Positions 1,971 to 61,324 of a stretch of 64,000 bases of DNA are shown in pieces. The stretch comes from Dokdonia sinensis (GTDB taxonomy: Bacteria > Bacteroidota > Bacteroidia > Flavobacteriales > Flavobacteriaceae). Both the position numbers and the translations under genes were made by a program. The notes beneath the pieces are model-generated. The model saw nothing but the letters and a program-made list of their open reading frames with translations. It ran no database searches and had not been told where the DNA came from. The DNA lies in contig NZ_REFV01000004.1 in assembly GCF_003688895.1 (NCBI RefSeq), positions 1 through 64,000 of the forward strand, written 5' to 3'. Numbering within the stretch: position 1 is the first letter of the stretch; each line of letters starts with the position of its first letter.

Positions 1971-1990
1971 TACGCTTTCGCGAAAGCGTA
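1971..1990. repeat. Iterated palindrome, full 20-bp form
   Basis: An exact copy of TACGCTTTCGCGAAAGCGTA in the 291-bp spacer between the divergent genes ending at 1824 and starting at 2116. This spacer otherwise shows nothing recognisable; a 63-codon open frame across it lacks coding character. Confidence 0.95.
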
Positions 1991-2115
1991 AATCTGACAA
2001 CTACCTCTCCTATCAAAGATAGCTCTGTCTACTCGTCGTAGTACTCATTACAGCAAGTTTGAAATAAAGTCCTAGATATAGACGTTATCGCAATATCAAT
2101 TTTAATCGAACAATT

Positions 2116-3177
2116 ATGAAGTATAAAATGTTTACTGCCGCAATTATGGCTGCCTTCCTAACTTTAGGATGTAGCACTCGCGATGATGATGGACTCGAAT
2201 CTAGCAATGTAGATGATTGCCTTAACTTTGGTTCTAGTGAGTTAAGACTCACAATACAAGAGTCCTTTACTACATTACCTTCTAAGGTTTCTGTATTTTT
2301 TAAAGTGACCGACAACGATGGTAATGGAGTCTCTAACCTCCTCGGCTCAAATTTTAGAGTTTTTGAAAAAGGAAGAAATGATGATTGTCCTAATGAAATA
2401 TCAAGTGCCGAATCTTCAGGGGACATCTCTCCCAATGCTCAAATTTTTAAGAATAACGCATTTCTAGTTTTAGATTTAAGTAATAGCGTGTTATCCACCA
2501 GCTTAACCGAACTTAAACAAGCATCTATAAGTTTTGTAAACAATGTCGTTCCGCAAACACAAACAGATTCTTTTAGAATGGCTATTTACTGGTTTGATGG
2601 AGAAAATGAACTTCATTTATTACAACCACTTACATCAGATATTACAACACTAGAAGCTGCAATAAACGGTATTACTACAGACATTAGTAATGACCCGTCT
2701 ACAGATTTATATGGTGCTGTTATAAAAGCGACCGCTGTTGCAGATGATGTAATAGATACGTTTGAGCAGCAAGAAATTTTTGCGGCAGCATCTGTCGTCA
2801 TATTTACAGATGGTACAGATCAAGCCGCACGCTTTACAAAAGCACAAGCGCTACAAAGTGTACGCAACGCAGATGCCGATATATCAATATTTACGATAGG
2901 CTTAGGGAGCGAAATAGACCAGCAAACATTATCCCAAATAGGTAAAACAGGAAGCGTAGTCGCAGAGAATTCTGCACAGTTAGAACAAGTATTTAATACG
3001 ATATCTGAAAATGTTTCTGGAGAGGCGAACAGTTTTTATCTTTTTGAATATTGCAGTCCTAAACGCGATGGAAGTGGTACTAACGAATTAACTATTCAAG
3101 CCTTTGACGGAGATAGACAGGGGTCTGTAGAAACTTCATTTAATGCAGAAGGGTTTACATCAGGCTGCACCAACTAG
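2116..3177 (+). CDS. VWA-domain lipoprotein
   Basis: A surface or periplasmic lipoprotein with a von Willebrand factor A domain, likely used for metal-dependent protein binding. The signal peptide ends in the lipobox LTLGC, with Cys at about residue 19, followed by an Asp-rich stretch (STRDDDG) typical of exported Bacteroidota lipoproteins. The VWA domain begins at about residue 115 with the MIDAS motif DLSNS (DxSxS). It continues through the strand FTDGTDQAARFTKAQ and the ISIFTIGLGSEID segment. The final 50 residues include a Cys pair (EYCSP, SGCTN). The gene stands alone with a strong hairpin directly downstream. The ligand is unknown. Confidence 0.88.
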   Translation: MKYKMFTAAIMAAFLTLGCSTRDDDGLESSNVDDCLNFGSSELRLTIQESFTTLPSKVSVFFKVTDNDGNGVSNLLGSNFRVFEKGRNDDCPNEISSAESSGDISPNAQIFKNNAFLVLDLSNSVLSTSLTELKQASISFVNNVVPQTQTDSFRMAIYWFDGENELHLLQPLTSDITTLEAAINGITTDISNDPSTDLYGAVIKATAVADDVIDTFEQQEIFAAASVVIFTDGTDQAARFTKAQALQSVRNADADISIFTIGLGSEIDQQTLSQIGKTGSVVAENSAQLEQVFNTISENVSGEANSFYLFEYCSPKRDGSGTNELTIQAFDGDRQGSVETSFNAEGFTSGCTN

Positions 3178-3212
3178 TAGTAATTAAGAAAGACTAATTA
3201 TAAATTAGACAT

Positions 3213-3248
3213 AATCCATTCTAAAACATTGCGCTTTTAGAATGGATT
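3213..3248 (+). terminator. Strong intrinsic terminator
   Basis: A perfect 14-bp stem (AATCCATTCTAAAA paired with TTTTAGAATGGATT) with an 8-nt loop, followed by TGTATTTTTC. It ends the VWA lipoprotein transcript 36 bp after the stop codon. It also sits immediately upstream of the next gene's start. Confidence 0.85.
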
Positions 3249-6598: not shown

Positions 6599-6612
6599 GC
6601 TTTCGCGAAAGC
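6599..6612. repeat. Iterated palindrome, 14-bp core
   Basis: An exact GCTTTCGCGAAAGC in the 104-bp spacer between the divergent methyltransferase and dipeptidase genes, 36 bp before the dipeptidase start codon. Confidence 0.95.
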
Positions 6613-9911: not shown

Positions 9912-12323
9912 TTAATGGATCGGCTCCTCAAAACATCCTATAGGAGAACCATCAGGAATTTTTGGCGATGGAATCACTTTAAATTTTTCTGGCTCTTTAA
10001 AAAAGGTCTCAATCTCAGACATCATATAAGCACTATTTGCGTCAAGGCTTCCCAACTTCTTGAGGTTGTCGTGTATGGTTTGTAGTTGCGCTTTCGCGAA
10101 AGCTTTACTCTGAGGGATCGCATCTTTATGGACGGTCAAGTTCATCAAATGTTTAAGTACATTATAATTAATGGTGCGCTGCACCTCAGCCTCATATGCT
10201 GAGTTTGTCTGATAATTGAGGGTCTCACGAGCCAAAGTACTAAGCATTTCAGGTAAGCCCAGATTTTTCTGATTCATCGCCTTTTGTTGCACGAGCCTGT
10301 TTGCCCTTTCAGGATGTAATAATAGTCCGAGTGTCATATCACTTGCGGTTGCCGCGGCTCCTAGAGCATCAAAACCTACGCCATTATTACTTTTAAAACT
10401 CTCCCGGGTGCGCCCGTAGCCGTGCGCTCTTGGTGGGAATAGTTCCAGCTTATCCTGAGGGATGGCCAGATGATCTGCTTGTAAGGTTTTTAGAACAGCC
10501 GTTAACGCAGCGTTTTGCTCTTTGCTGTTAAGGATAGAAACAACATTTAAATTTTTATCGCCTTTTACGGCATAATTATAATCGAGACCGCCTATAGATT
10601 TTACGGCAGCTTCTGTCTGATATCTGTGATAAAAGTAGAGAGGCACAAAAACGTCCTCTAGAACCGAGAGTGGCTCTCCCGTCTTTATGTTATCTATAGA
10701 AAAATTCTCTATAGCACCTTTACGTAATTTTAGGAGTGCATTAAGTTCTGATACAGCATTTGAGCCATTGTCCCAAAGGTGCGCCTTATAATGGGCTCCT
10801 CCTTGCGGTCTGGCATCACTGTCTGTAATGTAGTGGAGACCTTTTTGTTCTGCGTCTTCTATGACGTTATTTAAATACTCCTGCTCCGACACACCAGCCG
10901 GCGGAATGCCATAGCTATACTTCACCGTTACTTTATCCCAATCGCCTATACCAACGGCGTATGCATTAGAAAAATCAACTTCCTTCCCTGTCCAAGTTAA
11001 TGTAGGATGCGGATAATCCATCACGCTGGCCCGACCATTAGGACTGGCAGCAAAGTTATGTGCAAACCCGATGGTATGACCTACCTCGTGGGCGCTTAAC
11101 TGTCGTATTCTTGCGAGTGCCATTTCCAGCATAGGCTCATAGTTATCATCGCTATCCTTATAAGGTTGATTCATTAAAGCCTGAGCGATAAGAAAATCCT
11201 GGCGAATGCGAAGACTTCCCAGACTCACGTGACCTTTTATGATCTCGCCCGTTCGTGGGTCTGTAACACTCGCGCCATAACTCCATCCCCTAGTACTGCG
11301 GTGCACCCATTGTATCACATTATATCGTACATCCATCGGGTCTGCATCGTCTGGTAGCATTTTTACCTGAAAAGCATTTTTAAACCCTGCGGCCTCGTAT
11401 GCTTCATTCCACCAGCTCGCTCCTTCCAACAAAGCCGAACGTACCGGCTCTGGAGTTCCCGGGTCTAGGTAGTAAACAATAGGTTCTACCGCTTCACTCA
11501 TTGTGGCGTTTGGGTTTTTCTTTTCTAAACGGTGTCTATTTGCAAATCTTTTTACTATGGGCTCTTGCACGGGTGTAGCATAATCTAGGTATGTAGTAGA
11601 AATGTTTCCAGCTCTCGGGTCAAAGGGTCTAGGAGTATATCCATCATCCGGTAACTCCACAAAAGAATAGTGCTGTATCACCGTAAGTGCTCCAGAGTCT
11701 GGTGCCACAGAACGAATGTTTCTTCCCGTTGCTTCACCTTTAAAGGTAAGCATCGCCTCAAATTCCGTGTTCTTAGGGAAACTCTTTGTGCGCTCCATAT
11801 ATAGGGCACTTCTTGTTTTATCAACTTTATATGTTCCCTCTTTTCCTCTCTTTAATCTACTCGCAACACCGTGGGTGTCTTCCATTAAGAAAGGAGTAAG
11901 ATCTATGACATAGGTGTCGCCTTTAGTCTCCTTAATTTCAAATCCAAATAGGACTGAACGTGCAAAAGCCTCTTCGATAGAACGCCGTTCCAAGACATTA
12001 TCTGTATTTGCTCTGTAATTTAGATTGGGTTGCATAAGGAGTAACTTGTTCCCCGCTTTTTGAAACTTTACAACTGCTGTTCCTCCTAACTGTCCACGAT
12101 CTAAACCTATGTCATTTGAGCCTAGTCCAGTACGTAAAGAATGTACAAAAAGGAATTCTTCATCTAGTTTATTTACTTCTAGATAGAGTTCATCTTCGGC
12201 TTCATTGTAATGGAATTTAAAGAATCCATCTTGAGTTTTTAGGTCTTCTTTTTTTTCAAGGAATTGTGCAAATGTGGTCGTGGCGATGAGTAGCCCCACG
12301 ATGAGAAATAGATGTCTTTTCAT
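9912..12323 (-). CDS. Secreted zinc metalloprotease (DUF5117/DUF5118 type)
   Basis: An 803-residue exported zinc-dependent protease. A signal peptide (MKRHLFLIVGLLIATTTFAQ) is followed by the N-terminal DUF5118/5117 regions and then the active site SAHEVGHTIGFAHN. That site contains HExxH plus the third histidine, as in metzincin-like peptidases, at about residue 410. The C-terminal 250 residues are helical (DUF4953-like). The protein is probably periplasmic or outer-membrane associated; its substrate is unknown. An exact copy of the iterated palindrome lies inside the gene at 10090-10103, where it encodes AFAKA in a helical stretch. Length and architecture are normal for flavobacteria. Confidence 0.88.
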   Translation of the reverse strand: MKRHLFLIVGLLIATTTFAQFLEKKEDLKTQDGFFKFHYNEAEDELYLEVNKLDEEFLFVHSLRTGLGSNDIGLDRGQLGGTAVVKFQKAGNKLLLMQPNLNYRANTDNVLERRSIEEAFARSVLFGFEIKETKGDTYVIDLTPFLMEDTHGVASRLKRGKEGTYKVDKTRSALYMERTKSFPKNTEFEAMLTFKGEATGRNIRSVAPDSGALTVIQHYSFVELPDDGYTPRPFDPRAGNISTTYLDYATPVQEPIVKRFANRHRLEKKNPNATMSEAVEPIVYYLDPGTPEPVRSALLEGASWWNEAYEAAGFKNAFQVKMLPDDADPMDVRYNVIQWVHRSTRGWSYGASVTDPRTGEIIKGHVSLGSLRIRQDFLIAQALMNQPYKDSDDNYEPMLEMALARIRQLSAHEVGHTIGFAHNFAASPNGRASVMDYPHPTLTWTGKEVDFSNAYAVGIGDWDKVTVKYSYGIPPAGVSEQEYLNNVIEDAEQKGLHYITDSDARPQGGAHYKAHLWDNGSNAVSELNALLKLRKGAIENFSIDNIKTGEPLSVLEDVFVPLYFYHRYQTEAAVKSIGGLDYNYAVKGDKNLNVVSILNSKEQNAALTAVLKTLQADHLAIPQDKLELFPPRAHGYGRTRESFKSNNGVGFDALGAAATASDMTLGLLLHPERANRLVQQKAMNQKNLGLPEMLSTLARETLNYQTNSAYEAEVQRTINYNVLKHLMNLTVHKDAIPQSKAFAKAQLQTIHDNLKKLGSLDANSAYMMSEIETFFKEPEKFKVIPSPKIPDGSPIGCFEEPIH
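10090..10103. repeat. Iterated palindrome, 14-bp core, intragenic
   Basis: An exact GCTTTCGCGAAAGC inside the C-terminal part of the metalloprotease gene. It is read in frame as part of the sequence KAFAKAQL. Confidence 0.95.
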
Positions 12324-12363: not shown

Positions 12364-12377
12364 GCTTTCGCGAAAGC
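12364..12377. repeat. Iterated palindrome, 14-bp core
   Basis: An exact core (TACGCTTTCGCGAAAGCG from 12361) in the 221-bp spacer between the divergent metalloprotease and prfB genes. Confidence 0.95.
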
Positions 12378-14095: not shown

Positions 14096-15583
14096 ATGAA
14101 GACTAAATACATTGATCTTATAGATCAGAGTTTCTATTTTCCTCAAGAGGAATTTACTTTAGAAAATAATGCATTGCAGTTTCACGGTATTGACCTAATG
14201 AAACTGGTTGAGCAATATGGTGCCCCTCTAAAGTTTACCTATCTACCTAAAATATCTGATAACATCCAGAGAGCAAAAAAATGGTTTGCAGATGCTATTG
14301 AGGCAAACGGATACGAAGGAAATTACCACTACTGCTATTGCACAAAAAGTTCACATTTTAAACACGTGCTTAATGAGGCGTTAAGTAATGATATACATAT
14401 TGAGACTTCCTCAGCCTTTGACATAGATATCGTAGAGCGTCTTAAAGTCGAAGGAAAAATCACAAATGAAACTTACGTAATAAGCAACGGCTTTAAGCGT
14501 GACCAATATGTAAATAATATCGCCCGACTTATCAATAACGGACACAAGAATGCCATTCCCGTGATAGATAACTATGAAGAAATAGAATTGTTAAGTGAGG
14601 AGATAGAAGGAAAGTTTAAAGTGGGTATACGCATCGCGTCAGAGGAGGAACCTAAATTTGAGTTCTATACATCTAGATTAGGAATTGGGTACAAAAACAT
14701 AGTTCCTTTTTATACAAAGCAGATTGAGAGTAATCCTCAAGTAGAGCTTAAGATGTTGCACTTCTTTATCAATACTGGAATACGCGATACTGCATATTAC
14801 TGGAATGAGTTGATGAAATGTATCAAAGTCTACATTGCCCTAAAAAAGGTATGTCCTACACTAGATAGTCTCAACATAGGTGGTGGGTTTCCTATTAAGA
14901 ATTCGCTTGCTTTTGAGTATGACTATGCCTATATGATTAATGAAATCATCTACCAGATCAAAACAGCTTGTGATGAAGCTGGAGTAAAAGTTCCGCATAT
15001 TTTTACAGAATTTGGCAGTTTTACAGTAGGCGAAAGTGGCGGAGCCATTTATGAAGTACTCTACCAGAAACTACAAAACGACCGTGAAAAATGGAATATG
15101 ATTAATTCCTCATTTATCACAACAATGCCAGACACTTGGGCGATAAACAAGCGCTTTGTGATGCTTGCAGTAAATCGCTGGAATGAGGAATATGAGCGTG
15201 TCCTCCTGGGCGGACTTACCTGTGATAGTGACGACTATTATAATAGCGAGCAACATATGAATGCGATATATATGCCTAAGTATAAAAAAGACAAACCGCT
15301 CTACATCGGCTTTTTTAATACAGGCGCTTATCAGGAAACCATAGGAGGATTCGGCGGACTGCAACATTGCTTGATTCCTTCGCCCAAGCATATATTGATA
15401 GATAGAGATGAAGACGGAAATCTTACTACCGAAGTTTTTGCACAACAACAGACTAGTGACCAGTTGCTAGGAATTTTGGGGTATGGAAAAAATATAAATG
15501 GTGAGAATAACGCTCCCGAAATAAATTCGGGACAAGTTTTCGCGAAAGCTAAAGAAAAAACAGATCCGATTACAACATCATAA
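14096..15583 (+). CDS. speA: Biosynthetic arginine decarboxylase, short form
   Basis: A PLP-dependent (alanine-racemase fold) decarboxylase converting arginine to agmatine, the first step of polyamine synthesis. The PLP lysine lies in YCYCTKSSHFKH (Lys84). The glycine-rich phosphate loop is LNIGGGFPIKNS, and the C-terminal barrel carries FTEFGSFTVGES and LLGGLTCDSDD. At 495 residues it lacks the extra domains of the roughly 650-residue E. coli SpeA, as usual in Bacteroidota. The final 25 codons are built from two repeats: a TCCCGAA/TTCGGGA hairpin at 15514-15532 and a partial copy of the iterated palindrome at 15538-15549, so the tail (APEINSGQVFAKAKE) looks repeat-derived. Agmatinase follows. 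Confidence 0.9.
   Translation: MKTKYIDLIDQSFYFPQEEFTLENNALQFHGIDLMKLVEQYGAPLKFTYLPKISDNIQRAKKWFADAIEANGYEGNYHYCYCTKSSHFKHVLNEALSNDIHIETSSAFDIDIVERLKVEGKITNETYVISNGFKRDQYVNNIARLINNGHKNAIPVIDNYEEIELLSEEIEGKFKVGIRIASEEEPKFEFYTSRLGIGYKNIVPFYTKQIESNPQVELKMLHFFINTGIRDTAYYWNELMKCIKVYIALKKVCPTLDSLNIGGGFPIKNSLAFEYDYAYMINEIIYQIKTACDEAGVKVPHIFTEFGSFTVGESGGAIYEVLYQKLQNDREKWNMINSSFITTMPDTWAINKRFVMLAVNRWNEEYERVLLGGLTCDSDDYYNSEQHMNAIYMPKYKKDKPLYIGFFNTGAYQETIGGFGGLQHCLIPSPKHILIDRDEDGNLTTEVFAQQQTSDQLLGILGYGKNINGENNAPEINSGQVFAKAKEKTDPITTS
15514..15549. repeat. Two adjacent repeats in the speA 3' end
   Basis: TCCCGAA-ATAAA-TTCGGGA forms a hairpin. Five bases later TTTCGCGAAAGC is 12 of 14 bases of the iterated palindrome. 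Both are translated as the end of the decarboxylase. Confidence 0.7.
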
Positions 15584-18389: not shown

Positions 18390-18403
18390 GCTTTCGCGAA
18401 AGC
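18390..18403. repeat. Iterated palindrome, 14-bp core
   Basis: An exact GCTTTCGCGAAAGC between the terminator at 18355-18379 and the start of the PLP enzyme at 18520. Confidence 0.95.
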
Positions 18404-19649: not shown

Positions 19650-20729
19650 ATGAAAAAATCAATAGACGGACGCGCTTTAGTTTACTGCGAAGGCGCGTTT
19701 AATACCCCAAATGGTAAAACAGCTCACGGTCTCGTAAGATTTACAGAACGCTATGATGTTGTAGGTATAATAGACAGTCGCTACGCAGGTAAAGATGCGG
19801 GGCAAGTGCTGGACGGAAAAGCAAACGGAATATTTGTCTTTACTGATTTGGACGGCGCCGTAGCTCAACTCAAAGAAATGGAACTGTTGCCACAATCATT
19901 GGTCATAGGCCTTGCTCCTGACGGCGGAAGATTGCCCAAAGAGGCAAAAACAACAATTGCCAGAGCTTTGGAAATGGGTTGGAACGTGGATAGTGGCCTG
20001 CACGACTTTTTGACCAATGATCCTAACCTTGTAGAAACGGCAAAGGCTAATAAGGTACGTATCCGTGATATTCGGAAAACTCCGGATAGGGATGCGTTAC
20101 ACTTCTTTACTGGAGATATTGAGCAGGTGGATTGTTTAAAGTTAGCTGTACTGGGAACGGATTCGGCGATAGGTAAACGGACTACGGCGTGGTTAATCGT
20201 GCACGGTTTTCGCGAAAGCGGCCTAAAGTCAGAAATGATAGGCACAGGTCAAACGGCGTGGATGCAAGGCGCAAAATACAGTATGGTGATGGACAGTTGT
20301 ATCAATGATTTTGTGTCTGGAGAAATTGAACACGCTGTAGTGAGCGCTTACAAAAATGAAAAACCAGATGTCATTGTGATTGAAGGTCAGGGTAGCTTAA
20401 TGAACCCTGCATATCCCGGTGGATTTGAAATTCTCGCCGCAGGAAGACCCGATTATGTCATTCTGCAACACGCTCCTAAACGTGTAGAATACGACGGATT
20501 CCCAGGTTATAAATTGCATTCCCTGCAAGAGCAAATCAATGCAATCGAGGTGATTTCCGGTAAAAAAGTAGTGGCAATAACCGTAAACCACGAGGGTATG
20601 ACTCCAGAAGAAATTGATCCCGCGTGCAAAGCAATTACACAAGAAACCGGACTGCCTGCTTATGATGTGCTTGCTCACGGTGCGTCTGGACTTGTTGAAA
20701 CACTTAAATCCTACATCAAAAACGCTTAA
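19650..20729 (+). CDS. dgcN: DUF1611 protein, DgcN-type
   Basis: A 359-residue DUF1611 protein. Members named DgcN are reported to N-acetylate D-glutamate in a D-amino-acid catabolic route together with the epimerase DgcA. An N-terminal Rossmann-like domain (RYDVVGIIDSRYAGKDAG, SLVIGLAPDGGRLP) is followed by a C-terminal P-loop-like domain (VLGTDSAIGKRTTAW, VIVIEGQGSLMNPAYPG). It overlaps the next gene by one base (TAATG), so the two are co-translated. A nearly complete copy of the iterated palindrome is translated within it at 20208-20219. Family is secure; the reaction is from recalled literature. Confidence 0.82.
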   Translation: MKKSIDGRALVYCEGAFNTPNGKTAHGLVRFTERYDVVGIIDSRYAGKDAGQVLDGKANGIFVFTDLDGAVAQLKEMELLPQSLVIGLAPDGGRLPKEAKTTIARALEMGWNVDSGLHDFLTNDPNLVETAKANKVRIRDIRKTPDRDALHFFTGDIEQVDCLKLAVLGTDSAIGKRTTAWLIVHGFRESGLKSEMIGTGQTAWMQGAKYSMVMDSCINDFVSGEIEHAVVSAYKNEKPDVIVIEGQGSLMNPAYPGGFEILAAGRPDYVILQHAPKRVEYDGFPGYKLHSLQEQINAIEVISGKKVVAITVNHEGMTPEEIDPACKAITQETGLPAYDVLAHGASGLVETLKSYIKNA

Positions 20730-24278: not shown

Positions 24279-24824
24279 ATGATATTTAAACATATATTTT
24301 CGGTTGTTGTGGTGTTCGCTTTCGCGAAAGCGTTATCAGCACAAACCACCGCCACTCCAGGGCCTGTGATTTCCAATTTTGGCAAAACCTACCCAATAGA
24401 AAATCCAGACTTTGTAACCAACACTTCCCTAGTTTTTAAAGCAGTCTTTGACGTTTCCAAAGCGCCCGAAGACCCAGCCACCCGAAACCCGTACATAGAA
24501 ACCATCGCCCGCTTCCTGAATATGCACGCCAAAGCAGGCGTTCCCGTAGAAAACTTGCAGGTGCGAATGGCAATGCACGGGCAAGCCTCCTACGGATTGC
24601 TCAAAAATGAGTTTTACAAGGAGAAATACGGCGTAGACAACCCAAATATCGAACTATTAGAAGCTATAGACAACGCTGGAGTAGACGTCATCCTGTGCGG
24701 ACAAACCGCGGGAGCCAGAGATATTTCGCCAGAAAAACGAATCCCACTCACCCAAACCGCCCTAAGTGCAATGACGATATTATTGCAGTCGCAAGCGGAG
24801 GGGTTTGGATTGATTGCTTTTTAA
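24279..24824 (+). CDS. Exported DsrE-family protein
   Basis: A periplasmic protein of the DsrE/DsrF-like fold. After the signal peptide (VVVVFAFAKALSAQ), the DsrE core runs from about 45 to 175. A conserved cysteine sits in VDVILCGQTAGARDI, where DsrE proteins carry their sulfur-accepting residue. A role in sulfur relay or persulfide chemistry is possible but inferred only from that cysteine. Its signal peptide contains an exact copy of the iterated palindrome. It overlaps the next gene by one base (TAATG). Confidence 0.82.
   Translation: MIFKHIFSVVVVFAFAKALSAQTTATPGPVISNFGKTYPIENPDFVTNTSLVFKAVFDVSKAPEDPATRNPYIETIARFLNMHAKAGVPVENLQVRMAMHGQASYGLLKNEFYKEKYGVDNPNIELLEAIDNAGVDVILCGQTAGARDISPEKRIPLTQTALSAMTILLQSQAEGFGLIAF
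24318..24331. repeat. Iterated palindrome in a signal-peptide coding region
   Basis: An exact GCTTTCGCGAAAGC, read in frame as AFAKA at the end of the hydrophobic core of the DsrE-family signal peptide. Confidence 0.95.
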
Positions 24825-27352: not shown

Positions 27353-29182
27353 ATGCAAAAATATTTACAACCCCACCTCCTCCTAACCCTACTCACCCTA
27401 ACTACCACCCTATCCTTCTCTCAAGAAACGGCAAAACCCGTTTTTGAAGACGGAGAAGCACAGGTAGTTCCAGCCTTTGAAAACCCAGACAACTGGATAC
27501 GAGAAGACTTATGGGTAGAAACTGAGTTTGACACAGACGGTGACGGGAAGCCCGACCGTATGCACGTGGACGTGACACGTCCTGAGCAAACGGAAACCTC
27601 AGGATTGAAACTTCCTGTGGTATATGAGTCTAGTCCGTATTATGCTGGCGTTGCAGCAAATGATACAAACTTATTTTATGACGTAAAGCACGAAATAGGC
27701 GCACCAGAAAAACCCATTGCAAATGGTGTAGTCGTACGAAGAGGCGAACGTCCCATCATTTCAAATTCGCAAATTAGAACTTGGGTTCCTCGAGGGTATA
27801 TCGTGGTGCATTCTTCCTCACCAGGAACAGGACTCTCGGACGGTTCTCCTACCGTGGGGGGAGATAACGAGTCTCTCGCGCCTAAGGCAGTTATAGATTG
27901 GCTCAACGGCCGAGCCAAAGGCTACAAGTCTCGTGAAGGAAATGAAGAGGTCAAAGCTTATTGGTCTACAGGAAAAGTGGGAATGACGGGGACTTCTTAT
28001 AACGGGACGCTACCACTAGCAGCCGCGACAACAGGTGTCAAAGGACTGGAAGCCATCATCCCTGTTGCACCTAATACTTCTTATTATCATTATTACAGAT
28101 CAAATGGTCTTGTGCGTTCTCCGGGAGGTTATCTAGGTGAGGACATAGATGTACTATACAATTTCATTCACAGTGGTGATGAGTCTAAGAGAGCATACTC
28201 AGACAGTATCGTGCGCGATACCGAATATAAAAAAGGAATGGACCGCGCCACAGGGGATTATAATGATTTCTGGGCGGGACGGGATTATCTTAACGATATG
28301 GAACCTATGAAGGCCGCCTTATTGATGTCTCACGGTTTTAACGATTGGAATGTTATGCCAGAGCACAGTTATCGTATTTATAAAAGAGCCAAAGAAATGG
28401 GAATTCCGAGCCAAATATTCTATCACCAGAATGGTCACGGTGGCCCACCACCTATGAAAATGATGAATAGATGGTTTACAAAATACCTGCACGGCATAGA
28501 TAATGGCGTAGAAAATGACCCCAAAGCCCAGATTGTAAGAGAAAACGACCCACGCAATGAACCCACGGCTTATGAAGATTATCCTAATCCAGAGGCAGAG
28601 AATATTACTCTTCACCCAGGAGCCAGCAAAAAAGGACAAGGTACACTAGGCTTTAAGAAAACAAAGACTAAAGAGTCTTTTGTAGATAATTACACTATAA
28701 CCACTAAGGATATGATGAAAACGCCAGCATCGGCGCAACGTTTGTTGTACACTACACCAGTGCTCGATGAAGACCTGCATATTTCGGGTACGCCACAGGT
28801 AACCATCAGTATTTCTAGTAGTAAACCTGCGGCCAACTTGAGCGTATATCTGGTCTCCTTACCGTATGAAGAAGGCGACGATGTAAAAATAACTGACAAC
28901 CTCATCACCCGCGGTTGGGCAGACCCTCAAAATCATAAATCCATTACAGAAAGTGAACCGCTTAAAAAAGGAAAATTTTATGACGTCACGTTTGACTTAA
29001 TGCCAGATGACCAAATTATCAGAAAAGGACAGCAAATAGGCCTTATGATTTTCTCCAGTGACAGCGAGTTCACTATCCTCCCTGACCCGGGAACGGTACT
29101 GACGGTGGATTTAAAAAAGACAGAACTCGTGTTGCCTGTTGTGGGCGGAGAGGACGCTTTCGCGAAAGCGATAAAAAAATAA
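27353..29182 (+). CDS. Xaa-Pro dipeptidyl-peptidase, S15/CocE family
   Basis: A secreted serine peptidase of the S15/CocE-NonD family that releases X-Pro dipeptides from peptide N termini. A signal peptide (TTTLSFSQ) is followed by the alpha/beta-hydrolase domain. The nucleophile is in GMTGTSYNGTLPLAAA (G-x-S-x-x-G, Ser near residue 221); the acid and histidine lie in SHGFNDWNVMPEH and YHQNGHGGPP. The C-terminal jelly-roll domain contains VSLPYEEGDDVKITDN. The length of 609 residues is normal. The C terminus is encoded by an exact copy of the iterated palindrome (EDAFAKAIKK). It sits between two paralogous M20 hydrolases. Confidence 0.9.
   Translation: MQKYLQPHLLLTLLTLTTTLSFSQETAKPVFEDGEAQVVPAFENPDNWIREDLWVETEFDTDGDGKPDRMHVDVTRPEQTETSGLKLPVVYESSPYYAGVAANDTNLFYDVKHEIGAPEKPIANGVVVRRGERPIISNSQIRTWVPRGYIVVHSSSPGTGLSDGSPTVGGDNESLAPKAVIDWLNGRAKGYKSREGNEEVKAYWSTGKVGMTGTSYNGTLPLAAATTGVKGLEAIIPVAPNTSYYHYYRSNGLVRSPGGYLGEDIDVLYNFIHSGDESKRAYSDSIVRDTEYKKGMDRATGDYNDFWAGRDYLNDMEPMKAALLMSHGFNDWNVMPEHSYRIYKRAKEMGIPSQIFYHQNGHGGPPPMKMMNRWFTKYLHGIDNGVENDPKAQIVRENDPRNEPTAYEDYPNPEAENITLHPGASKKGQGTLGFKKTKTKESFVDNYTITTKDMMKTPASAQRLLYTTPVLDEDLHISGTPQVTISISSSKPAANLSVYLVSLPYEEGDDVKITDNLITRGWADPQNHKSITESEPLKKGKFYDVTFDLMPDDQIIRKGQQIGLMIFSSDSEFTILPDPGTVLTVDLKKTELVLPVVGGEDAFAKAIKK
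29156..29169. repeat. Iterated palindrome at gene 3' end
   Basis: An exact GCTTTCGCGAAAGC, translated as AFAKA in the last codons of the dipeptidyl-peptidase gene. The next exact copy is only 102 bp away. Confidence 0.95.
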
Positions 29183-37101: not shown

Positions 37102-37121
37102 TACGCTTTCGCGAAAGCGTA
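37102..37121. repeat. Iterated palindrome, full 20-bp form
   Basis: An exact TACGCTTTCGCGAAAGCGTA in the 225-bp spacer between the divergent GH3 fusion and M28 peptidase genes. Confidence 0.95.
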
Positions 37122-40426: not shown

Positions 40427-40748
40427 TTAAATTCTTAAAATCCTTTTTACTAAATCGCACTACAAGTGCTAATCTGTGTTCGCCTGGCTTCCTGTATTTT
40501 GGGTTGTATCGTTCTAGCATCGATTGTCGCATTGCTTCTTGCTGCAAGACGTCCATTTGCTTTTCAGAACAAAAGTCACAGAATATCTTTTTTACCGTAA
40601 GAGAATCTACTTCTAATTTTTCTCCTATATACAATCTGGTGTACATTTTAAATTGTAAGGAATCTTGTCTATAGTCGTAATGGGTTTGCGCTTTCGCGAA
40701 AGCGGAAAAAAACAACATCCCAGCTATGACAAAAAAATTAGTTTTCAC
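40410..40748 (-). CDS. Small exported protein, unknown function
   Basis: A 112-residue protein with a signal peptide (MLFFSAFAKAQ) whose C-terminal part is encoded by an exact copy of the iterated palindrome. The mature part contains one CxxC pair (FCDFCSEKQ) and is helical and charged (QQEAMRQSMLERYNPKYR). The CxxC could bind metal or be redox-active. It overlaps both neighbours (the membrane Fe-S gene and the HAD gene), so it belongs to the same operon. No family was recognised. Confidence 0.7.
   Translation of the reverse strand: MKTNFFVIAGMLFFSAFAKAQTHYDYRQDSLQFKMYTRLYIGEKLEVDSLTVKKIFCDFCSEKQMDVLQQEAMRQSMLERYNPKYRKPGEHRLALVVRFSKKDFKNLNEQNE
40690..40703. repeat. Iterated palindrome in a signal-peptide coding region
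   Basis: An exact GCTTTCGCGAAAGC, read on the minus strand as AFAKA just before the cleavage site of the small exported protein. Confidence 0.95.
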
Positions 40749-43121: not shown

Positions 43122-44228
43122 CTAATTTAACACTTTATCAAGCGGGATTTTGATGTTATTATCATCAAAAGAAACAATAAATGCAGAGGTATATCCTTTA
43201 GACTTTGCCTCGGCCAGTCGTTTTCTTATCGCATTATAATCATTTGTACTACCGCTATAATATTTATAAAGATTACCATCACGCACTCTTGAGATTTCTG
43301 GTAGTTTTTTAAAGTTATAAGATTTTGGCTCTAATTTTTTACTGCTAGCGGCGAGTTGCACTTTAAAAGTTACATTATTAAATATTTGCTTCTTCTCTAC
43401 AGCAACCGATTGTTCTTTAAAAGCCGTGGGTTCAAAAACAAAAACCTTGTCCTTATAGCTTCTAACCGACTTTGCAATAGCGCCAGCAATTTCTTGCTGG
43501 CCCTTTTTTGAAGCCAAATATTTTCCTTCTGTCACATTTGTTATAAAACCAGTTTCAATAAGAATGCTTGGCATTGTCGTTTGGTGCAGTACGACAAACC
43601 CTGCTTGTTTTACACTACGGTTCTTCCGGCCAAGATCTTTTGTAAAGTTGTCTTGCACCATTGATGCAATAAGAATGCTTTGATCTAAAAACTCTTCTTG
43701 CATTAAGTTGAGGCCTATAATTGATTCAGGAGAATTGATATTGTAATCTGCATAAGCGACCTCGTAGTCTTCTTCCATAAAAATTACGGAATTCTCTGCT
43801 TTTGCAACACGCAGATTCTCTTCGTTTGCGTGAAGTCCCAGTACATAAGTCTCCGTTCCATAAGCTTGGGTGTTATGTGCATTACAATGTATGGATATAA
43901 ATAGGTCAGCTTTCTCGCGATTTGCAATAGCTCCACGCTCTCTTAGTTTTATGAAAACGTCTGTTTTACGCGTATAAACTACGTCGATGTCCGTATTTTT
44001 TTCTAGTTGCTCCCCAAGAGCTAGTGCAATTTTTAGCGCAATATCACTTTCTTTGAAACCTGCCTTAGAAGGCTTTCCAGGATCATCTCCTCCGTGACCT
44101 GCATCGATAACGACCTTAAATTTCTTAGATGATGGTTGTTGTGAGTACGCTTTCGCGAAAGCGGAAAAAACAACAAGCAACGTTAAAATAATATTAAATG
44201 TAATTCTAGAACGCATCCTTTTATTCAA
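43122..44228 (-). CDS. N-acetylmuramoyl-L-alanine amidase (Amidase_3)
   Basis: A zinc amidase that cuts the bond between MurNAc and L-Ala in peptidoglycan, needed for cell separation. The signal peptide (VVFSAFAKAYSQ) includes an exact copy of the iterated palindrome. The catalytic domain (about 38-260) has VVIDAGHGGDDPG (zinc His), GFKESD (zinc Glu), FISIHCNAH (zinc His) and SILIETGFITN (catalytic Glu). The C-terminal 100 residues end in a SPOR-like repeat (KVQLAASSKKLEPKSYNF, AKSKGYTSAFIVSF) that would direct it to the division site. It is divergent from lptD. Confidence 0.92.
   Translation of the reverse strand: MNKRMRSRITFNIILTLLVVFSAFAKAYSQQPSSKKFKVVIDAGHGGDDPGKPSKAGFKESDIALKIALALGEQLEKNTDIDVVYTRKTDVFIKLRERGAIANREKADLFISIHCNAHNTQAYGTETYVLGLHANEENLRVAKAENSVIFMEEDYEVAYADYNINSPESIIGLNLMQEEFLDQSILIASMVQDNFTKDLGRKNRSVKQAGFVVLHQTTMPSILIETGFITNVTEGKYLASKKGQQEIAGAIAKSVRSYKDKVFVFEPTAFKEQSVAVEKKQIFNNVTFKVQLAASSKKLEPKSYNFKKLPEISRVRDGNLYKYYSGSTNDYNAIRKRLAEAKSKGYTSAFIVSFDDNNIKIPLDKVLN
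44149..44162. repeat. Iterated palindrome in a signal-peptide coding region
   Basis: An exact GCTTTCGCGAAAGC, read on the minus strand as AFAKA in the signal peptide of the amidase. Confidence 0.95.
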
Positions 44229-47637: not shown

Positions 47638-48427
47638 CTGTTGTAAGTGTTAAGCCATCATAGGCAAGGTATACGTTTTCTGGAAGTTGTTTTTCAACTT
47701 CTGCGTGAAAGCCCATAATATGGCTTATGTGGGTAAAATATGTCCGTTTAGGTTTTATGAGCGATACAAGTTCCAGCGCCTCTTCTACATTGAGATGCGT
47801 AGGATGTTCCTCATAACGCAGCGCGTTGATCACGAGTATATCGAGACCTTTTAATTTTTCAATTTCGGCTGGAGCTATAGTTTTAACATCTGTGAGATAT
47901 GCGATCTGGTCAAAACGATATCCAAAAACCTGCAATTTACCGTGAAAAACTTCAATGGGCACGACTTCTACACCACTCAGTTTTAGAGAAATATTATTTC
48001 GAACTTCGATAGCTTTAACGCTGGGAGCGCCAGGGTATCGATTTTCGGTAGTAAATATGTAGTCAAATCTTTCTCTTAACGTCTTCAGCACTCTTTGATG
48101 TGCATAAAAAGGCATATCGCCTTGCCTGAAGACGAATGGCCTAATATCATCTAGTCCAGCAACATGATCTGCGTGTTCATGGGTAAATAGGATACCGTTC
48201 AACACAGGAAGTGGCTGTGGGGGATTACGCTTTCGCGAAAGCGTACGCAACATCTGTTCCCTAAAATCAGGACCGCAATCTATTACATAATTATTATTCT
48301 TCCATTGTATAAGAACGGAGACCCGCAACCTCTTGTCACGAGGGTCATCACTATGACAAACAGGGTGATTACTCCCTATGACAGGGATTCCTTGCGATGT
48401 TCCGGTTCCTAAAAAAGTGATTTTCAC
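47627..48427 (-). CDS. MBL-fold metallo-hydrolase (PhnP/RNase Z-like)
   Basis: A metallo-beta-lactamase-fold hydrolase close to PhnP-type phosphodiesterases. Motifs are FLGTGTSQGIPVIGS at the start, the metal site FTHEHADHVAGLDDIRPF, LTDVKTIAP and YFTHISHIMGFH. The probable start is the GTG at 48427 (KITFLGTGTSQGIP). A promoter at 48444-48473 lies downstream of the more distal start at 48472, so that start would not be in the transcript. It is 266 residues long and cytosolic. The substrate, probably a cyclic or nucleotide phosphodiester, is unknown. The gene contains an exact full copy of the iterated palindrome. Confidence 0.87.
   Translation of the reverse strand: MKITFLGTGTSQGIPVIGSNHPVCHSDDPRDKRLRVSVLIQWKNNNYVIDCGPDFREQMLRTLSRKRNPPQPLPVLNGILFTHEHADHVAGLDDIRPFVFRQGDMPFYAHQRVLKTLRERFDYIFTTENRYPGAPSVKAIEVRNNISLKLSGVEVVPIEVFHGKLQVFGYRFDQIAYLTDVKTIAPAEIEKLKGLDILVINALRYEEHPTHLNVEEALELVSLIKPKRTYFTHISHIMGFHAEVEKQLPENVYLAYDGLTLTTDET
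48226..48245. repeat. Iterated palindrome, full 20-bp form, intragenic
   Basis: An exact TACGCTTTCGCGAAAGCGTA within the MBL hydrolase gene, read as TLSRKRN rather than AFAKA, so it is not tied to one reading frame. Confidence 0.95.
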
Positions 48428-50958: not shown

Positions 50959-51275
50959 AATTTTATTTGAATTTACGCGAAGGCAGAAATATCGGTCCAC
51001 CCCACACGGTTATTAATATGTTACTAATTTATACGCTTTTCCTCTTACGTTGAAGCTTTTGCAGACAATTACGAAACCAGAAATCTCACCCGTGCTTCCC
51101 GATTTTAAAAGATATTTCTAGTCGTATTCATAGTTCAAATCGCAACTAATCGCGATGAAATCTCCCTCCACTATTCGCTATTCCTAATACTGCTTCTTAT
51201 CTTTACATTATACGCTTTCGCGAAATTTACTCTGAATTCATTTCACGAGCGTAACCATTATAAAAATACTGATTA
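50959..51275. other. Intergenic region with half-decayed palindrome
   Basis: A 317-bp spacer between bcp and nth. It contains TACGCTTTCGCGAAA at 51211-51225, that is, 15 of 20 bases of the iterated palindrome with a lost right end. A TATCTTTA near 51200 is a possible -7 box for nth. No gene was seen. Confidence 0.5.
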
Positions 51276-54433: not shown

Positions 54434-54453
54434 TACGCTTTCGCGAAAGCGTA
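54434..54453. repeat. Iterated palindrome, full 20-bp form
   Basis: An exact TACGCTTTCGCGAAAGCGTA between the rplI terminator and the DUF6495-like gene. Confidence 0.95.
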
Positions 54454-58755: not shown

Positions 58756-58824
58756 CTGTGCATAAAATCCTATATAACCTATAAAATAACACATCAGACC
58801 GACTGAACTATTTAGCTCAACTCA

Positions 58825-61278
58825 TTAATAACAATCCACATCCATTATCAACCGCACACTTCTAAACTGTGCAATGGCTTGAAAGCTGGTTTTTACTTTA
58901 AGAATGGCGGTTTTAGTCTGGGAGATGTTTTGCTTTCGCGAAAGCTTCACCATCACATTTCTTCTGTACTGATTGCGCACACGAGCCACAGAGGGTGTTT
59001 CTGGACCCAATACGGCTTCATCGCCCAGCACTTGACGTAGCGCTCTTGATAACCAAATACTACTATCCTCAATCTTCTGGTAATCCCTATGCTTTAACGT
59101 AATCCTAATCAACCTATGAAATGGCGGATATTTGAAACTACGCCGATCCTCGAGTTGCTCCTCGTACATCGCCGTAAACTTATTTGCGCTTACCTGTTGC
59201 AATATTTGATGATAGGGATTGTAAGTCTGTACCAATACCTTCCCCTGTTTCTCGGTACGCCCTGCCCTACCCGATACCTGCGCTATGAGCTGGTAACTAC
59301 GCTCGTGAGCGCGGAAATCTGGAAAATTGAGCATACTGTCTGCATTGAGAATGCCGACTAAGGATACGTTTCTAAAATCCAATCCTTTAGTAAGCATCTG
59401 TGTACCTACGAGGATGTCTATTTCTTCTTGCTCAAAGGCAGTAATTATCTTTTCAAATCCATACTTCCCCTTTGTCGTATCAGAATCCATCCGGCCTATG
59501 TTGAGCTCGGGGTAGAGTTCGCGTAGTTCCAGTTCTATCTGTTCGGTACCAAAACCTTTTGTGGTGAGGTCTGGACTGCCACAGGCCATACATTTTAATT
59601 GCATTGCAATGTGATAGCCACAATAGTGACACCGCAACTGATTGCGATATTTATGATACGTTAGACTTACGTCACAGTTGGGGCATTGTGGTGCGTGACC
59701 ACAGGTCGTACATTCCAAAATGGGTGAAAAACCGCGCCTGTTCTGGAACAAAATCACTTGCTCTCCTAAAGAAATGGCATCGGTTATTGCTCGGAGCAAG
59801 GTATCGCTAAAATGCCCTGTCATCTCTCGCTTACGGTGCTTTTCCTTGATATCTACCAAGTTTATTTCTGGCATCAGGATGTTTCCGTGGCGCTGTTTAA
59901 GTTCTACAAAGCCGTATTTTCCAGATTTGGCATTGTATACCGTTTCTAACGCTGGGGTGGCGGATCCTAGTAAGACTTTGGCATTAAAGATATTTCCTAA
60001 AACTATGGCAGTGTCCCGAGCGTGATAGCGTGGCGCTGGTTCAAACTGCTTAAAACTGCTCTCGTGCTCCTCATCTACAATAATAAAATCTAGATTTCTG
60101 AACGGCAGTAAAATAGCACTACGCGCCCCGATGATAATTTGTGCTTTGTCTGCCTTCGCCAGTACATTGTTGTACACCTCTACCCGCTCGTGTATGGAAT
60201 ATTTGGAATGAAAAACGGCTACTTTTTCTCCAAAATACGCCTGCAATCTAGAAATAAGCTGTGTCGTCAGGGCGATTTCTGGAAGTAAGTATAAGACTTG
60301 GTTACCGGTATCCAGCATTTCTCCGATGAGGGAGACGTAGATTTCTGTCTTTCCTGATGCGGTTACGCCGTGCAACAGGCACACCTCTTTGATTTCGTAG
60401 CTCTCCTTAATTTCGGCGAGGGCGGTTTCTTGGTGTGGGTTTAGGGTTTTGGTGACCTCGGTATCTCCTTCGAATTCTATGCGGTCTTTTCGTTTTTCAA
60501 AAAGTTCGAATATTCCCTTGTCTACCAAGGATTGTAGTTGCGTTGCGGTGGCTTTGGCTTGCTTTTGGAGGTCGAGTGCTTTTATGGGTTTATTTGTTTT
60601 CGCTTTAAGCGAAAAAAACTGTAGTACCATTTCCCGTTGTTTGGGCGCTCGAGATAGTTCTTCCATAATCGCCGTAAATGAGGTCTCGCTCTCATAATCG
60701 GGATGCAGTTGTACAAATTTTACAATTTTAGGCTTGTACTGCTCGTAGATTTCCTCGCGCAGTGTGAGCGCTCCTTTCTCCAAAAGACTTTTTATGTGCG
60801 GAAATACCTTGCGTTTTTCCAAAATATCCATCACCTCTTGAATCTTAAGCTCCGACTGATGTTGTAGGGCTTCGTATATCAAGAATTCCTCGTCTTTTAG
60901 GTTTTGATCTTCGAGGATGGTTTCCGGATTTCGTACAACTATGGTTTCACTTTCTAGTAAAAATGCGCTGGGAAGTGACGCTCGCATTACTTGGCCCTCC
61001 GTACACATATAGTAAGAAGCAATCCACTTCCAGAGTTTAAGCTGTTCTGGCGTGACGATGGGCGTCTCATCTAGAATGTGCTCAATTTCCTTTGCCTCAT
61101 ATATCGTGGGCGCCGTATTGTGAATGTGCTTTACAATCCCAGCGTAGACCTTTGATTTCCCAAATGGAACAGCCACCCGCATCCCAGGTTGCAGGAACTG
61201 AGCTTCGGCTTGAGAAACACGGTAGGTAAACGTATTCTCGACTGGAATGGGCAGTATGACGTCTATGAAATAATTCAC
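58825..61278 (-). CDS. priA: Primosomal replication protein N', PriA helicase
   Basis: A 3'-to-5' DNA helicase that restarts stalled replication forks. The 3'-DNA binding domain spans about 1-110 (FTYRVSQAEAQFLQPGMRV). Walker A is GVTASGKTEIYV (304-315) and the DEEH box is FIIVDEEHESSFKQ. Eight zinc-binding cysteines sit in CTTCGHAPQCPNCD, CHYCGY and CMACGSPD, and the helicase arginines are in AQVSGRAGRTEKQ. The length of 817 residues is normal. An exact copy of the iterated palindrome lies near the 3' end. The 3' end is duplicated 1.2 kb away, marking an insertion site. Confidence 0.96.
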   Translation of the reverse strand: MNYFIDVILPIPVENTFTYRVSQAEAQFLQPGMRVAVPFGKSKVYAGIVKHIHNTAPTIYEAKEIEHILDETPIVTPEQLKLWKWIASYYMCTEGQVMRASLPSAFLLESETIVVRNPETILEDQNLKDEEFLIYEALQHQSELKIQEVMDILEKRKVFPHIKSLLEKGALTLREEIYEQYKPKIVKFVQLHPDYESETSFTAIMEELSRAPKQREMVLQFFSLKAKTNKPIKALDLQKQAKATATQLQSLVDKGIFELFEKRKDRIEFEGDTEVTKTLNPHQETALAEIKESYEIKEVCLLHGVTASGKTEIYVSLIGEMLDTGNQVLYLLPEIALTTQLISRLQAYFGEKVAVFHSKYSIHERVEVYNNVLAKADKAQIIIGARSAILLPFRNLDFIIVDEEHESSFKQFEPAPRYHARDTAIVLGNIFNAKVLLGSATPALETVYNAKSGKYGFVELKQRHGNILMPEINLVDIKEKHRKREMTGHFSDTLLRAITDAISLGEQVILFQNRRGFSPILECTTCGHAPQCPNCDVSLTYHKYRNQLRCHYCGYHIAMQLKCMACGSPDLTTKGFGTEQIELELRELYPELNIGRMDSDTTKGKYGFEKIITAFEQEEIDILVGTQMLTKGLDFRNVSLVGILNADSMLNFPDFRAHERSYQLIAQVSGRAGRTEKQGKVLVQTYNPYHQILQQVSANKFTAMYEEQLEDRRSFKYPPFHRLIRITLKHRDYQKIEDSSIWLSRALRQVLGDEAVLGPETPSVARVRNQYRRNVMVKLSRKQNISQTKTAILKVKTSFQAIAQFRSVRLIMDVDCY
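58932..58945. repeat. Iterated palindrome, 14-bp core, intragenic
   Basis: An exact GCTTTCGCGAAAGC near the 3' end of priA, read on the minus strand as KLSRKQ. Confidence 0.95.
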
Positions 61279-61304
61279 AGCGCTAAAATACGAAGATGTC
61301 TAAT

Positions 61305-61324
61305 TACGCTTTCGCGAAAGCGTA
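61305..61324. repeat. Iterated palindrome, full 20-bp form
   Basis: An exact TACGCTTTCGCGAAAGCGTA between priA and the mini tail-collar gene, both on the minus strand. Confidence 0.95.

What the first reader, a model, noticed from the sequence alone, without database searches (positions are those of the whole stretch)
1971..61324. Highly iterated 14-20 bp palindrome about every 4 kb, in genes and between them
Seen: 16 exact copies of GCTTTCGCGAAAGC (starts 1974, 6599, 10090, 12364, 18390, 24318, 29156, 29258, 34060, 37105, 40690, 44149, 48229, 54437, 58932, 61308). Five extend to the full TACGCTTTCGCGAAAGCGTA. Eight lie inside genes and eight between genes; partial copies exist at 15538, 20208 and 51211. 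A given 14-mer is expected well under once in 64 kb. Apart from the 29156/29258 pair, spacing is rather even. This resembles HIP1 of cyanobacteria in density, palindromy and tolerance inside genes. Possible roles (inference): binding site of a nucleoid or segregation protein, methylation target, or mobile micro-element.
Basis: seen in the sequence. Interest (0 to 1): 0.9.

Follow-up and report, generated by a model that had tools for sequence, protein, structure and literature searches.

The report
Evenly spaced palindrome tagging marine flavobacteria
A marine flavobacterium (genus Dokdonia) carries a 14-letter DNA palindrome about 860 times, spread evenly and strongly preserved, which looks like a genome-wide tag read by a dedicated protein, perhaps to recognise its own DNA.

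Summary
All 16 copies of GCTTTCGCGAAAGC are at the stated places, and the host genome (Dokdonia, 3.65 Mb) has 857 against none for the reversed control. The 18 Dokdonia genomes searched carry 369-905. Of 298 genomes sampled from the family only Dokdonia, Nonlabens and one unnamed genus have hundreds.
New here: (1) spacing is regular, pairs under 1 kb nearly absent; (2) copies sit between ~20-nt arms poor in C on the 5' side and in G on the 3' side, within and between genes; (3) 45 of 48 copies are identical between two species in which only 53% of nearby 14-bp windows are; (4) most losses leave no large gap; (5) two island-like stretches and two Nonlabens phages lack it; (6) four methyltransferase families and ParB show no carrier-specific partner.
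It is HIP1-like in form, but no HIP1-type enzyme was found. A DNA-uptake-type self tag fits best (0.38); a nucleoid-protein site is the main rival. I found no paper describing it. The reader protein is unknown.

The parts
1974..1987 (.). exact 14-bp palindrome, full TAC..GTA 20-mer; between divergent genes
6599..6612. exact 14-bp palindrome; between divergent genes by my gene calls (inside a GTG-start ORF)
10090..10103 (.). exact 14-bp palindrome, in gene 9912-12323 (DUF5117/Met-zincin), frame A-F-A-K-A
12364..12377 (.). exact 14-bp palindrome; intergenic
15514..15549 (-). split copy: GCTTTCGCGAAA followed by a 24-bp REP-like hairpin (15514-15537)
18390..18403 (.). exact 14-bp palindrome; intergenic
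20206..20219 (.). one-sided copy GTTTTCGCGAAAGC inside ORF 19650-20729
24318..24331 (.). exact 14-bp palindrome 39 bases into a DsrE-like protein gene (signal-peptide region by eye)
29156..29169 (.). exact 14-bp palindrome at the 3' end of a peptidase S15 gene
29258..29271 (.). exact 14-bp palindrome 48 bases into an M20 peptidase gene (signal-peptide region by eye); with 29156 the only pair closer than 500 bp among 114 own-genome gaps
34060..34073 (.). exact 14-bp palindrome; intergenic; a copy within about 36 bp in 11 of 13 Dokdonia relatives (two placed by extrapolation)
37105..37118 (.). exact 14-bp palindrome, full 20-mer; divergent intergenic; in G298 an unrelated stretch of nearly the same length (1 bp longer) stands in its place
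40690..40703 (.). exact 14-bp palindrome; intergenic; a copy within about 20 bp in 8 of 14 relatives
44149..44162 (.). exact 14-bp palindrome near the start of an N-acetylmuramoyl-L-alanine amidase gene; a copy within about 15 bp in 8 of 12 relatives
48229..48242. exact 14-bp palindrome, full 20-mer; intergenic by my gene calls (inside a TTG-start ORF)
51214..51250 (+). split copy GCTTTCGCGAAA - 23 bp - GC(GTAACC)
54437..54450 (.). exact 14-bp palindrome, full 20-mer; intergenic
58932..58945 (.). exact 14-bp palindrome near the 3' end of the priA gene
61308..61321 (.). exact 14-bp palindrome, full 20-mer; upstream of priA

Best explanation
The element is a double-stranded DNA recognition tag: a 14-bp perfect palindrome (weaker consensus TTACGCTTTCGCGAAAGCGTAA) with about 20 nt on each side that avoid C on the 5' flank and G on the 3' flank. 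SHOWN: number, spacing, arms, conservation, taxon limits in the samples searched, loss mostly without large gaps. INFERRED: a dimeric protein reads it as dsDNA. Most likely (0.38) it works as a DNA-uptake-type self tag: fragments that carry it are taken up or recombined preferentially, so copies are spread and kept in the shared (core) genome by conversion plus selection. A second copy on the same fragment adds nothing, which would produce the observed lack of close pairs. Newly arrived islands and phage DNA have not yet received copies. (First put at 0.4; lowered because a recheck, showed the surroundings evolve close to the genome average, so one uptake-sequence trait is only weakly met.)
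For: Regular spacing: gamma shape 2.8 (own, 114 gaps) and 2.7 (G298, 152 gaps), histograms peaking at 3-3.5 kb; gaps under 1 kb 2.2% against 22% under a gene-aware null. 60 of 106 copies in genes, intergenic density about 6.6-fold higher, no promoter or terminator preference. Core identical in 45 of 48 sites against 254 of 479 nearby control windows. Treangen et al. report for Neisseria uptake sequences a highly conserved core, core-genome bias, absence from recently acquired genes and slightly more divergent surroundings (PMC2397512, abstract and passages); the first three resemble this case. Fewer copies per Mb in large Dokdonia genomes: 162 (4 genomes over 4 Mb) against 237 (9 smaller), of 13 at least 90% complete. 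Two site-poor stretches of G298 hold, beyond a single copy near one end, an integrase/mercury/restriction-modification region and an integron-like array. Two Nonlabens phages, 0 copies in 65.7 kb. Site positions rarely shared between genera although the motif is: 1 of 19 comparisons within 60 bp. Riemerella anatipestifer and R. columbina, placed by that paper in the same family, are naturally competent and R. columbina prefers its own DNA (PMC7965970, passages). ComEC in 15 of 15 carriers.
Against: Known uptake sequences are not palindromes (PMC1939737, passages). I found no report of natural transformation in Dokdonia: one search gave one paper, whose title and abstract start do not concern it; I did not open it. 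ComEC is also in 9 of 10 non-carriers, so it does not discriminate. Surroundings are only marginally faster than background (gap-free identity 0.920 at 11-20 bp, P 0.005; 0.937 at 21-50 bp, not significant; background 0.943). Copy number does rise with genome size if all 18 Dokdonia genomes, incomplete ones included, are used (Spearman 0.60, P 0.009), though not significantly in the 13 at least 90% complete (0.40, P 0.17). Not every gap is foreign DNA: own-genome gaps of 13-18 kb look like ordinary genes. Exact copies outnumber single-mismatch copies 254 to 31, which suggests stronger constraint than I expect for an uptake motif. Density, 1 per 4 kb, is lower than about 1 per kb for USS/DUS. 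No receptor was identified.
Confidence: 0.38

Rival explanations
1. Chromosome-organising site: a dimeric nucleoid or segregation protein binds every copy, setting about 4-kb units along the chromosome, and the arms are wrapped or contacted DNA.
For: Palindromy; each of 20 sampled stretches of a complete chromosome holds at least one copy, variance/mean 0.70; a gap mode at 3-4 kb; symmetric arms in genes and between; core strongly conserved.
Against: Fewer copies per Mb in large genomes and none over about 17-19 kb in two island-like stretches, odd for an architectural need. No extra ParB-type gene in carriers: 1 copy in 13 of 15, 2 in the other two; non-carriers 1 in 14 of 18, 2 in 4. No candidate protein.
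Confidence: 0.25
2. Bidirectional recombination hotspot (Chi-like): an end-processing nuclease/helicase stops at the palindrome from either direction and RecA loads on the GT-rich 5' arm of whichever strand is left.
For: The 5' arm of each strand is rich in G and T and poor in C. C-T exchange is low there, 1.4% against 3.7% in background, while A-G exchange is 5.5% against 3.3%, so the arms look constrained in composition. A weak 3-bp T periodicity at -4, -7, -10, -13 in intergenic sites (permutation P 0.035, 0.036 and 0.056 for 12, 16 and 24 positions). That RecA prefers GT-rich DNA in base triplets is recalled.
Against: Known Chi sites are not palindromes and not confined to a few genera (recalled). 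Even spacing with excluded close pairs is not required. The periodicity is marginal, and the arms are weak in G190.
Confidence: 0.1
3. HIP1-like site made and kept by an orphan DNA methyltransferase and linked mismatch repair (Elhai model).
For: Same outward form as HIP1. 8 of 31 single-mismatch copies are C>T at the first C of CGCG (folded on the dyad), as methyl-C deamination would give.
Against: No methyltransferase shared by the 15 carriers: N6_N4_Mtase in 4 of 15, C5 in 6 of 15, N6_Mtase in 14 of 15 (at scattered loci, none in G190), D12 in 9 of 15. Phages of a carrier genus lack even TCGCGA in the 65.7 kb examined. Other methyltransferase families were not searched.
Confidence: 0.1
4. 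Mobile micro-element (REP/REPIN type) that inserts itself.
For: A 24-bp REP-like hairpin is found at a fixed point inside some copies in this species. 3 of 20 aligned losses have a gap of 9 or more bases.
Against: At 94% identity 3 of 3 differences are single substitutions within the 14-mer; at about 71% identity 17 of 20 pairs without an exact copy show no large gap. Arm positions beyond 3 bp are not conserved above background. Where checked (2 loci), the hairpin was inserted into a pre-existing copy.
Confidence: 0.05
5. Transcription terminator or RNA hairpin.
For: The palindrome can fold as a short hairpin (by eye; not folded here).
Against: Only 3 of 46 intergenic copies lie between convergent genes, which hold 7.3 of 48.4 kb of intergenic DNA; 60 of 106 lie inside genes. 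Arms show no complementarity beyond composition from position 4 outward.
Confidence: 0.02

Closest known systems
HIP1 (GCGATCGC) of cyanobacteria and its alternates
   Same: palindrome, hundreds of copies or more, inside and between genes, taxon-limited
   Different: longer (14-20 bp), arms of biased composition, no shared methyltransferase found among four families, different phylum, unrelated sequence
DNA uptake sequences: USS of Haemophilus, DUS of Neisseria
   Same: even spacing, conserved core, fewer in acquired DNA, biased flanks around the core (AT-rich in USS)
   Different: perfect palindrome, about 4-fold sparser, few near-matches, surroundings barely faster than average, uptake function not shown
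parS / Noc-type palindromic ParB-family sites
   Same: 14-16-bp palindrome read by a dimer (recalled)
   Different: some 860 copies spread widely; one or two ParB-type genes in carriers as in non-carriers
Chi sites
   Same: about one per 4-5 kb (recalled), GT-rich neighbourhood
   Different: palindromic, so without direction; lineage-limited
REP/REPIN elements
   Same: short repeated palindromes, some fused to this one
   Different: the 14-mer differs between species mostly by substitution, not insertion

Membership tests
HIP1-type highly iterated palindrome (outward form) | palindrome far over expectation in and between genes | tested here: met
   857 copies, reversed control 0; 106 against 0.0013 expected in a 464-kb sample; 60 of 106 in genes
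HIP1-type highly iterated palindrome (outward form) | cognate DNA methyltransferase present in carriers | tested here: not met
   no family among PF01555, PF00145, PF02384, PF02086 in all 15 carriers; other families not searched
HIP1-type highly iterated palindrome (outward form) | sequence GCGATCGC in a cyanobacterium | tested here: not met
   sequence GCTTTCGCGAAAGC, genus Dokdonia by contig-length match of a same-genus relative
DNA uptake sequence | DNA with the motif is preferentially taken up | not testable with these tools
   needs transformation assays
DNA uptake sequence | even spacing, few close pairs | tested here: met
DNA uptake sequence | core conserved within slightly faster-evolving surroundings | tested here: inconclusive
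   core 45 of 48; surroundings gap-free 0.920 at 11-20 bp (P 0.005), 0.936-0.937 at 21-100 bp, background 0.943
DNA uptake sequence | rare in recently acquired DNA | tested here: inconclusive
   two island-like stretches and two phages without copies inside; density lower in large genomes; but ordinary genes fill some gaps
DNA uptake sequence | non-palindromic motif | tested here: not met
   perfect 14-bp palindrome; the expectation is from PMC1939737
DNA uptake sequence | DNA-import machinery present | tested here: met
   ComEC in 15 of 15 carriers, but also in 9 of 10 non-carriers
parS/Noc site | carrier-specific ParB-family protein | tested here: not met
   ParB_N in 33 of 33 genomes; second copies in 2 of 15 carriers and 4 of 18 non-carriers
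parS/Noc or matS-type site | clustering at or exclusion from a large chromosome region (origin or terminus) | tested here: not met
   20 stretches of 20 kb spread over a complete chromosome hold 1-7 each, variance/mean 0.70; origin and terminus themselves were not located
REP/REPIN | present/absent as an insertion | tested here: not met
   3 of 3 substitutions; 17 of 20 aligned losses without and 3 with a gap of 9 or more bases

The most novel reading that the evidence does not exclude
A two-part DNA address, a 14-bp palindrome plus strand-asymmetric arms that exclude C on each 5' side, is a direction-free tag for DNA exchange (a palindromic uptake sequence or a two-way Chi) in Bacteroidota, kept in three genera by an unknown dimeric reader and spread by conversion through the shared genome but not into islands or phages.
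Probability: 0.34. Interest if true: 0.88.

Novelty: new variant of a known kind. Interest (0 to 1): 0.74.

Why it matters
HIP1 was described in 1995 (cited in PMC4390886) and, as far as I know, still has no agreed function. Here is a longer iterated palindrome in an unrelated phylum, with handles for testing: arms constrained in composition, measured short-range exclusion, close and distant species pairs for comparison, and named genera (Dokdonia, Nonlabens) to work in. If it marks self DNA for exchange, it would be the first such tag I know of in Bacteroidota. If it organises the nucleoid, it predicts an unrecognised DNA-binding protein. It may also serve as a tracer of gene flow: low-copy genomes carry it largely in metal-efflux clusters.

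Tried and rejected
parS-like origin cluster: low-copy relatives have clustered copies with a repeated 933-bp spacing, which first looked like a centromere. In the 18 stretches fetched many lie in metal-efflux clusters: of 10 genes scanned (9 of them bearing a copy) 7 match efflux or metal families (OEP, ACR_tran, E1-E2 ATPase, CusB/HMBD, FUR), one DUF4138, one DUF2652, one beta-lactamase-fold/rhodanese. The 933-bp pair lies in one 405-aa outer-membrane efflux gene. Rejected.

Terminator/RNA hairpin: disfavoured. Rfam found nothing in the window. No tRNA.

Orphan methyltransferase: four families searched, none in all carriers. Not all families were searched.

Extra ParB/Noc paralogue: none specific to carriers.

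Dialects with the same 10-bp core elsewhere in the family: only the same three genera are high among 298 genomes, the next highest being 34. A dialect with a different core would be missed.

Mended on recheck: flank identity counted gaps as mismatches, the background did not; redone gap-free, the surroundings are only marginally faster than average. Six of the pairs called changed have an exact copy within 60 columns (shifted or gapped alignment). The genome-size test used 12 genomes and left out G311; redone with 13 and with all 18.


Full report
WHAT WAS CHECKED. The host genome, 3.65 Mb in 43 contigs, has 857 exact copies and none of the reversed control. In a 464-kb sample (400 kb of contig C1, fetched, plus the window) there are 106, against an order-3 Markov expectation of 0.0013.

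WHO CARRIES IT. All 18 genomes of the genus that were searched carry 369-905 copies. The genus is Dokdonia: contig C1 of relative G313 has exactly the length (850,193) of a named Dokdonia contig. Among 298 genomes drawn from the family (236 genera), 60 have at least one copy, but only the own genome (857), two Nonlabens (578, 664) and G190 (408; genus unnamed, 3,163,819-bp chromosome, G+C 0.42-0.47 in the four stretches taken) have hundreds; the next highest is 19. Among 395 genomes drawn from the phylum, 22 have a copy and none but the own genome has more than 6. The 10-bp core TTTCGCGAAA is high in the same three genera only: 1107, 595, 700 and 559, next highest 34 of 298 genomes. In low-copy genomes many of the copies examined lie in metal-efflux gene clusters that look transferred.

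ANATOMY. Beyond the 14-mer, symmetrised position -1 is C in 89% and -3 is T in 78% of 253 pooled Dokdonia sites (own and G298), giving a weak consensus TTACGCTTTCGCGAAAGCGTAA. Outside this lie arms: in the 5' sense, positions -4 to -20 are 7% C, 26% G, 40% T, 27% A, against about 20% C at 150-200 bp. The bias holds in intergenic (46) and in-gene (60) copies, in 52 Nonlabens and 45 other Dokdonia sites and 31 sites of low-copy genomes, and is much weaker in 12 sites of G190. The arms are not complementary to each other beyond composition from position 4 outward, so they do not extend a hairpin; positions 1-3 show a small excess. Between two species at 94% identity, C-T exchange in the 5' arms is 1.4% against 3.7% in background, while A-G exchange is 5.5% against 3.3%. 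The arms are thus constrained in composition, not sequence; I infer that C is selected against there. Intergenic sites show a marginal 3-bp T rhythm (permutation P 0.035 over 12 positions, 0.056 over 24).

DISTRIBUTION. By home-made gene calls, 60 of 106 copies lie in genes, although 88-89% of the sequence is coding; intergenic density is about 6.6-fold higher. Intergenic copies roughly follow the length of tandem (32 copies, 30.8 kb), divergent (11, 10.3 kb) and convergent (3, 7.3 kb) gaps, so no promoter or terminator role is indicated. In genes, 37 of 60 read Ala-Phe-Ala-Lys-Ala. Spacing is regular: CV 0.66 (90 copies, own contig; 0 of 5000 gene-aware simulations as low) and 0.74 (first 100 listed copies of G298, P 0.0003); gaps below 1 kb are 2.2% and 4.0% against 22% and 23% expected; pooled gaps peak at 3-4 kb, 48 against 19.6. 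Gamma shapes are 2.8 and 2.7. Twenty 20-kb stretches spread over a complete chromosome (G298) hold 1 to 7 copies, variance/mean 0.70, with no large void; origin and terminus were not located. Counts rise with G+C (Spearman 0.68, P 0.001). The two poorest stretches hold one copy each, near one end. One then runs into a tyrosine integrase, mercury-transport and restriction-modification genes; the other into a tyrosine integrase followed by a repeat array that looks like an integron. A third poor stretch (2 copies) was not annotated. Among 13 Dokdonia genomes at least 90% complete the count does not rise significantly with genome size (Spearman 0.40, P 0.17; 237 per Mb in 9 below 4 Mb, 162 per Mb in 4 above); with all 18, incomplete ones included, it does (0.60, P 0.009). 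Large gaps in the own genome are not all foreign: two of 13-18 kb hold curli-like and other ordinary-looking genes (by eye). Two Nonlabens phages (35.7 kb whole, 30 kb of the second) have no copy of the 14-mer, the 10-mer or TCGCGA.

EVOLUTION. In the aligned parts of 200 kb of G298 against G313 (94.3% identity outside the sites), 45 copies are identical in both and 3 are in one only, each differing by a single substitution within the 14-mer. Control 14-bp windows 30-100 bp away are identical in 254 of 479 (53%), P = 8e-10. Counted without gaps, flank positions 1-3 are 98.5% identical, 4-10 94.6%, 11-20 92.0% (P 0.005), 21-50 93.7%, 51-100 93.6% (P 0.04), background 94.3%: beyond 3 bp the surroundings evolve at or slightly above the average rate. 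At about 71% identity, 52 own-versus-relative pairs over 19 own sites could be aligned: 26 exact, 6 with an exact copy within 60 columns, 17 without a copy and without a large gap, 3 without a copy and with a gap; 11 of the 19 sites have an exact copy in at least one relative. Four window sites supply 37 of the 52 pairs, so the pairs are not independent; neutral survival of a 14-mer at 71% would be under 1%. By position, 34060 has a counterpart within about 36 bp in 11 of 13 relatives, 37105 within 20 bp in 7 of 14, 40690 in 8 of 14 and 44149 in 8 of 12. Some counterparts are shifted by 13-36 bp within the same short gap, so this is conservation of place more than of base. At 37105, G298 has an unrelated stretch 1 bp longer while the flanks stay alike. 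Between genera, only 1 of 19 ortholog comparisons with a copy on either side had copies within 60 bp (13 with Nonlabens, 6 with G190). The motif is thus old or shared, and the set of sites is renewed. Exact copies outnumber single-mismatch copies 254 to 31 in 1.06 Mb.

WHAT READS IT. Four methyltransferase families were sought in 15 carriers: N6_N4_Mtase in 4, C5 in 6, N6_Mtase in 14 (at scattered loci, none in G190), D12 in 9. None is a common partner, against what Elhai reports for HIP1 (PMC4390886: abstract and passages seen). ParB_N proteins are as numerous in carriers as in non-carriers. ComEC is in 15 of 15 carriers and 9 of 10 non-carriers.

INTERPRETATION. Regular spacing with short-range exclusion, a conserved core and scarcity in island-like DNA and phages are properties reported for Neisseria and Haemophilus uptake sequences (PMC2397512, PMC7811141, PMC1939737; abstracts and passages), apart from the phages, which are my own comparison. 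Naturally competent Riemerella, placed by its authors in the same family, exist, and R. columbina prefers its own DNA; the same paper found Flavobacterium johnsoniae not competent under its conditions, and its own candidate motifs are short k-mers unlike this one in the part of the table I saw (PMC7965970, abstract start and passages; PMC8459023, abstract start in listing). Palindromy, sparse near-matches and the lack of any known competence are the main difficulties for the first; lower density in large genomes and site-free islands for the second. I found no print report of the motif: searches for the 14-mer, its core, HIP with Flavobacteria, Nonlabens/Dokdonia with palindromes and a wider set of terms gave no paper whose listing describes it; listed papers other than those cited were not opened.

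Noticed in passing
window 15514-15549 and 51214-51250; own contig C1 at 80107, 92821, 153619, 193437, 277088, 293088, 322621: A REP-like hairpin unit of 23-24 bp (at least two sequence families) sits at a fixed point inside the palindrome (between GC and TTT). At C1 80107 and 322621 relatives G298 and G313 have the intact palindrome, so the unit was inserted into pre-existing copies; at 293088 the G313 ortholog has neither.
   Followed up: partly
L031-L048 (unnamed relatives; G101 has the contig length of Altibacter lentus): Genomes without the genome-wide palindrome carry it largely in metal-efflux clusters; one 405-aa outer-membrane efflux gene has two copies 933 bp apart in G101, G078, G214 and G087, four genera. 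Possible tracer of transfer from carrier lineages.
   Followed up: partly
L355 (G298:C1:2850001-2870000): Integron-like array: tyrosine integrase followed by same-strand ORFs separated by long repeats of several hundred bases with a constant GCCGCACTCGCTTTATGTAGTGG block in 12 copies; its only palindrome copy lies at 848, beside the integrase gene.
   Followed up: partly
own genome, 464-kb sample: Copies with a broken outer end (core intact, one outer GC lost) are common in this species, 30 against 106 exact, but rare in G298, 11 against 148; species differ in how copies decay.
   Followed up: partly
L337, L338 (phages P12024S, P12024L): Neither phage has a single TCGCGA in the 65.7 kb examined, possibly avoidance; expectation not computed.
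   Followed up: no
window 34089-37010: One 973-aa ORF fuses a glycoside hydrolase family 3 domain to a beta-lactamase-fold domain.
   Followed up: no
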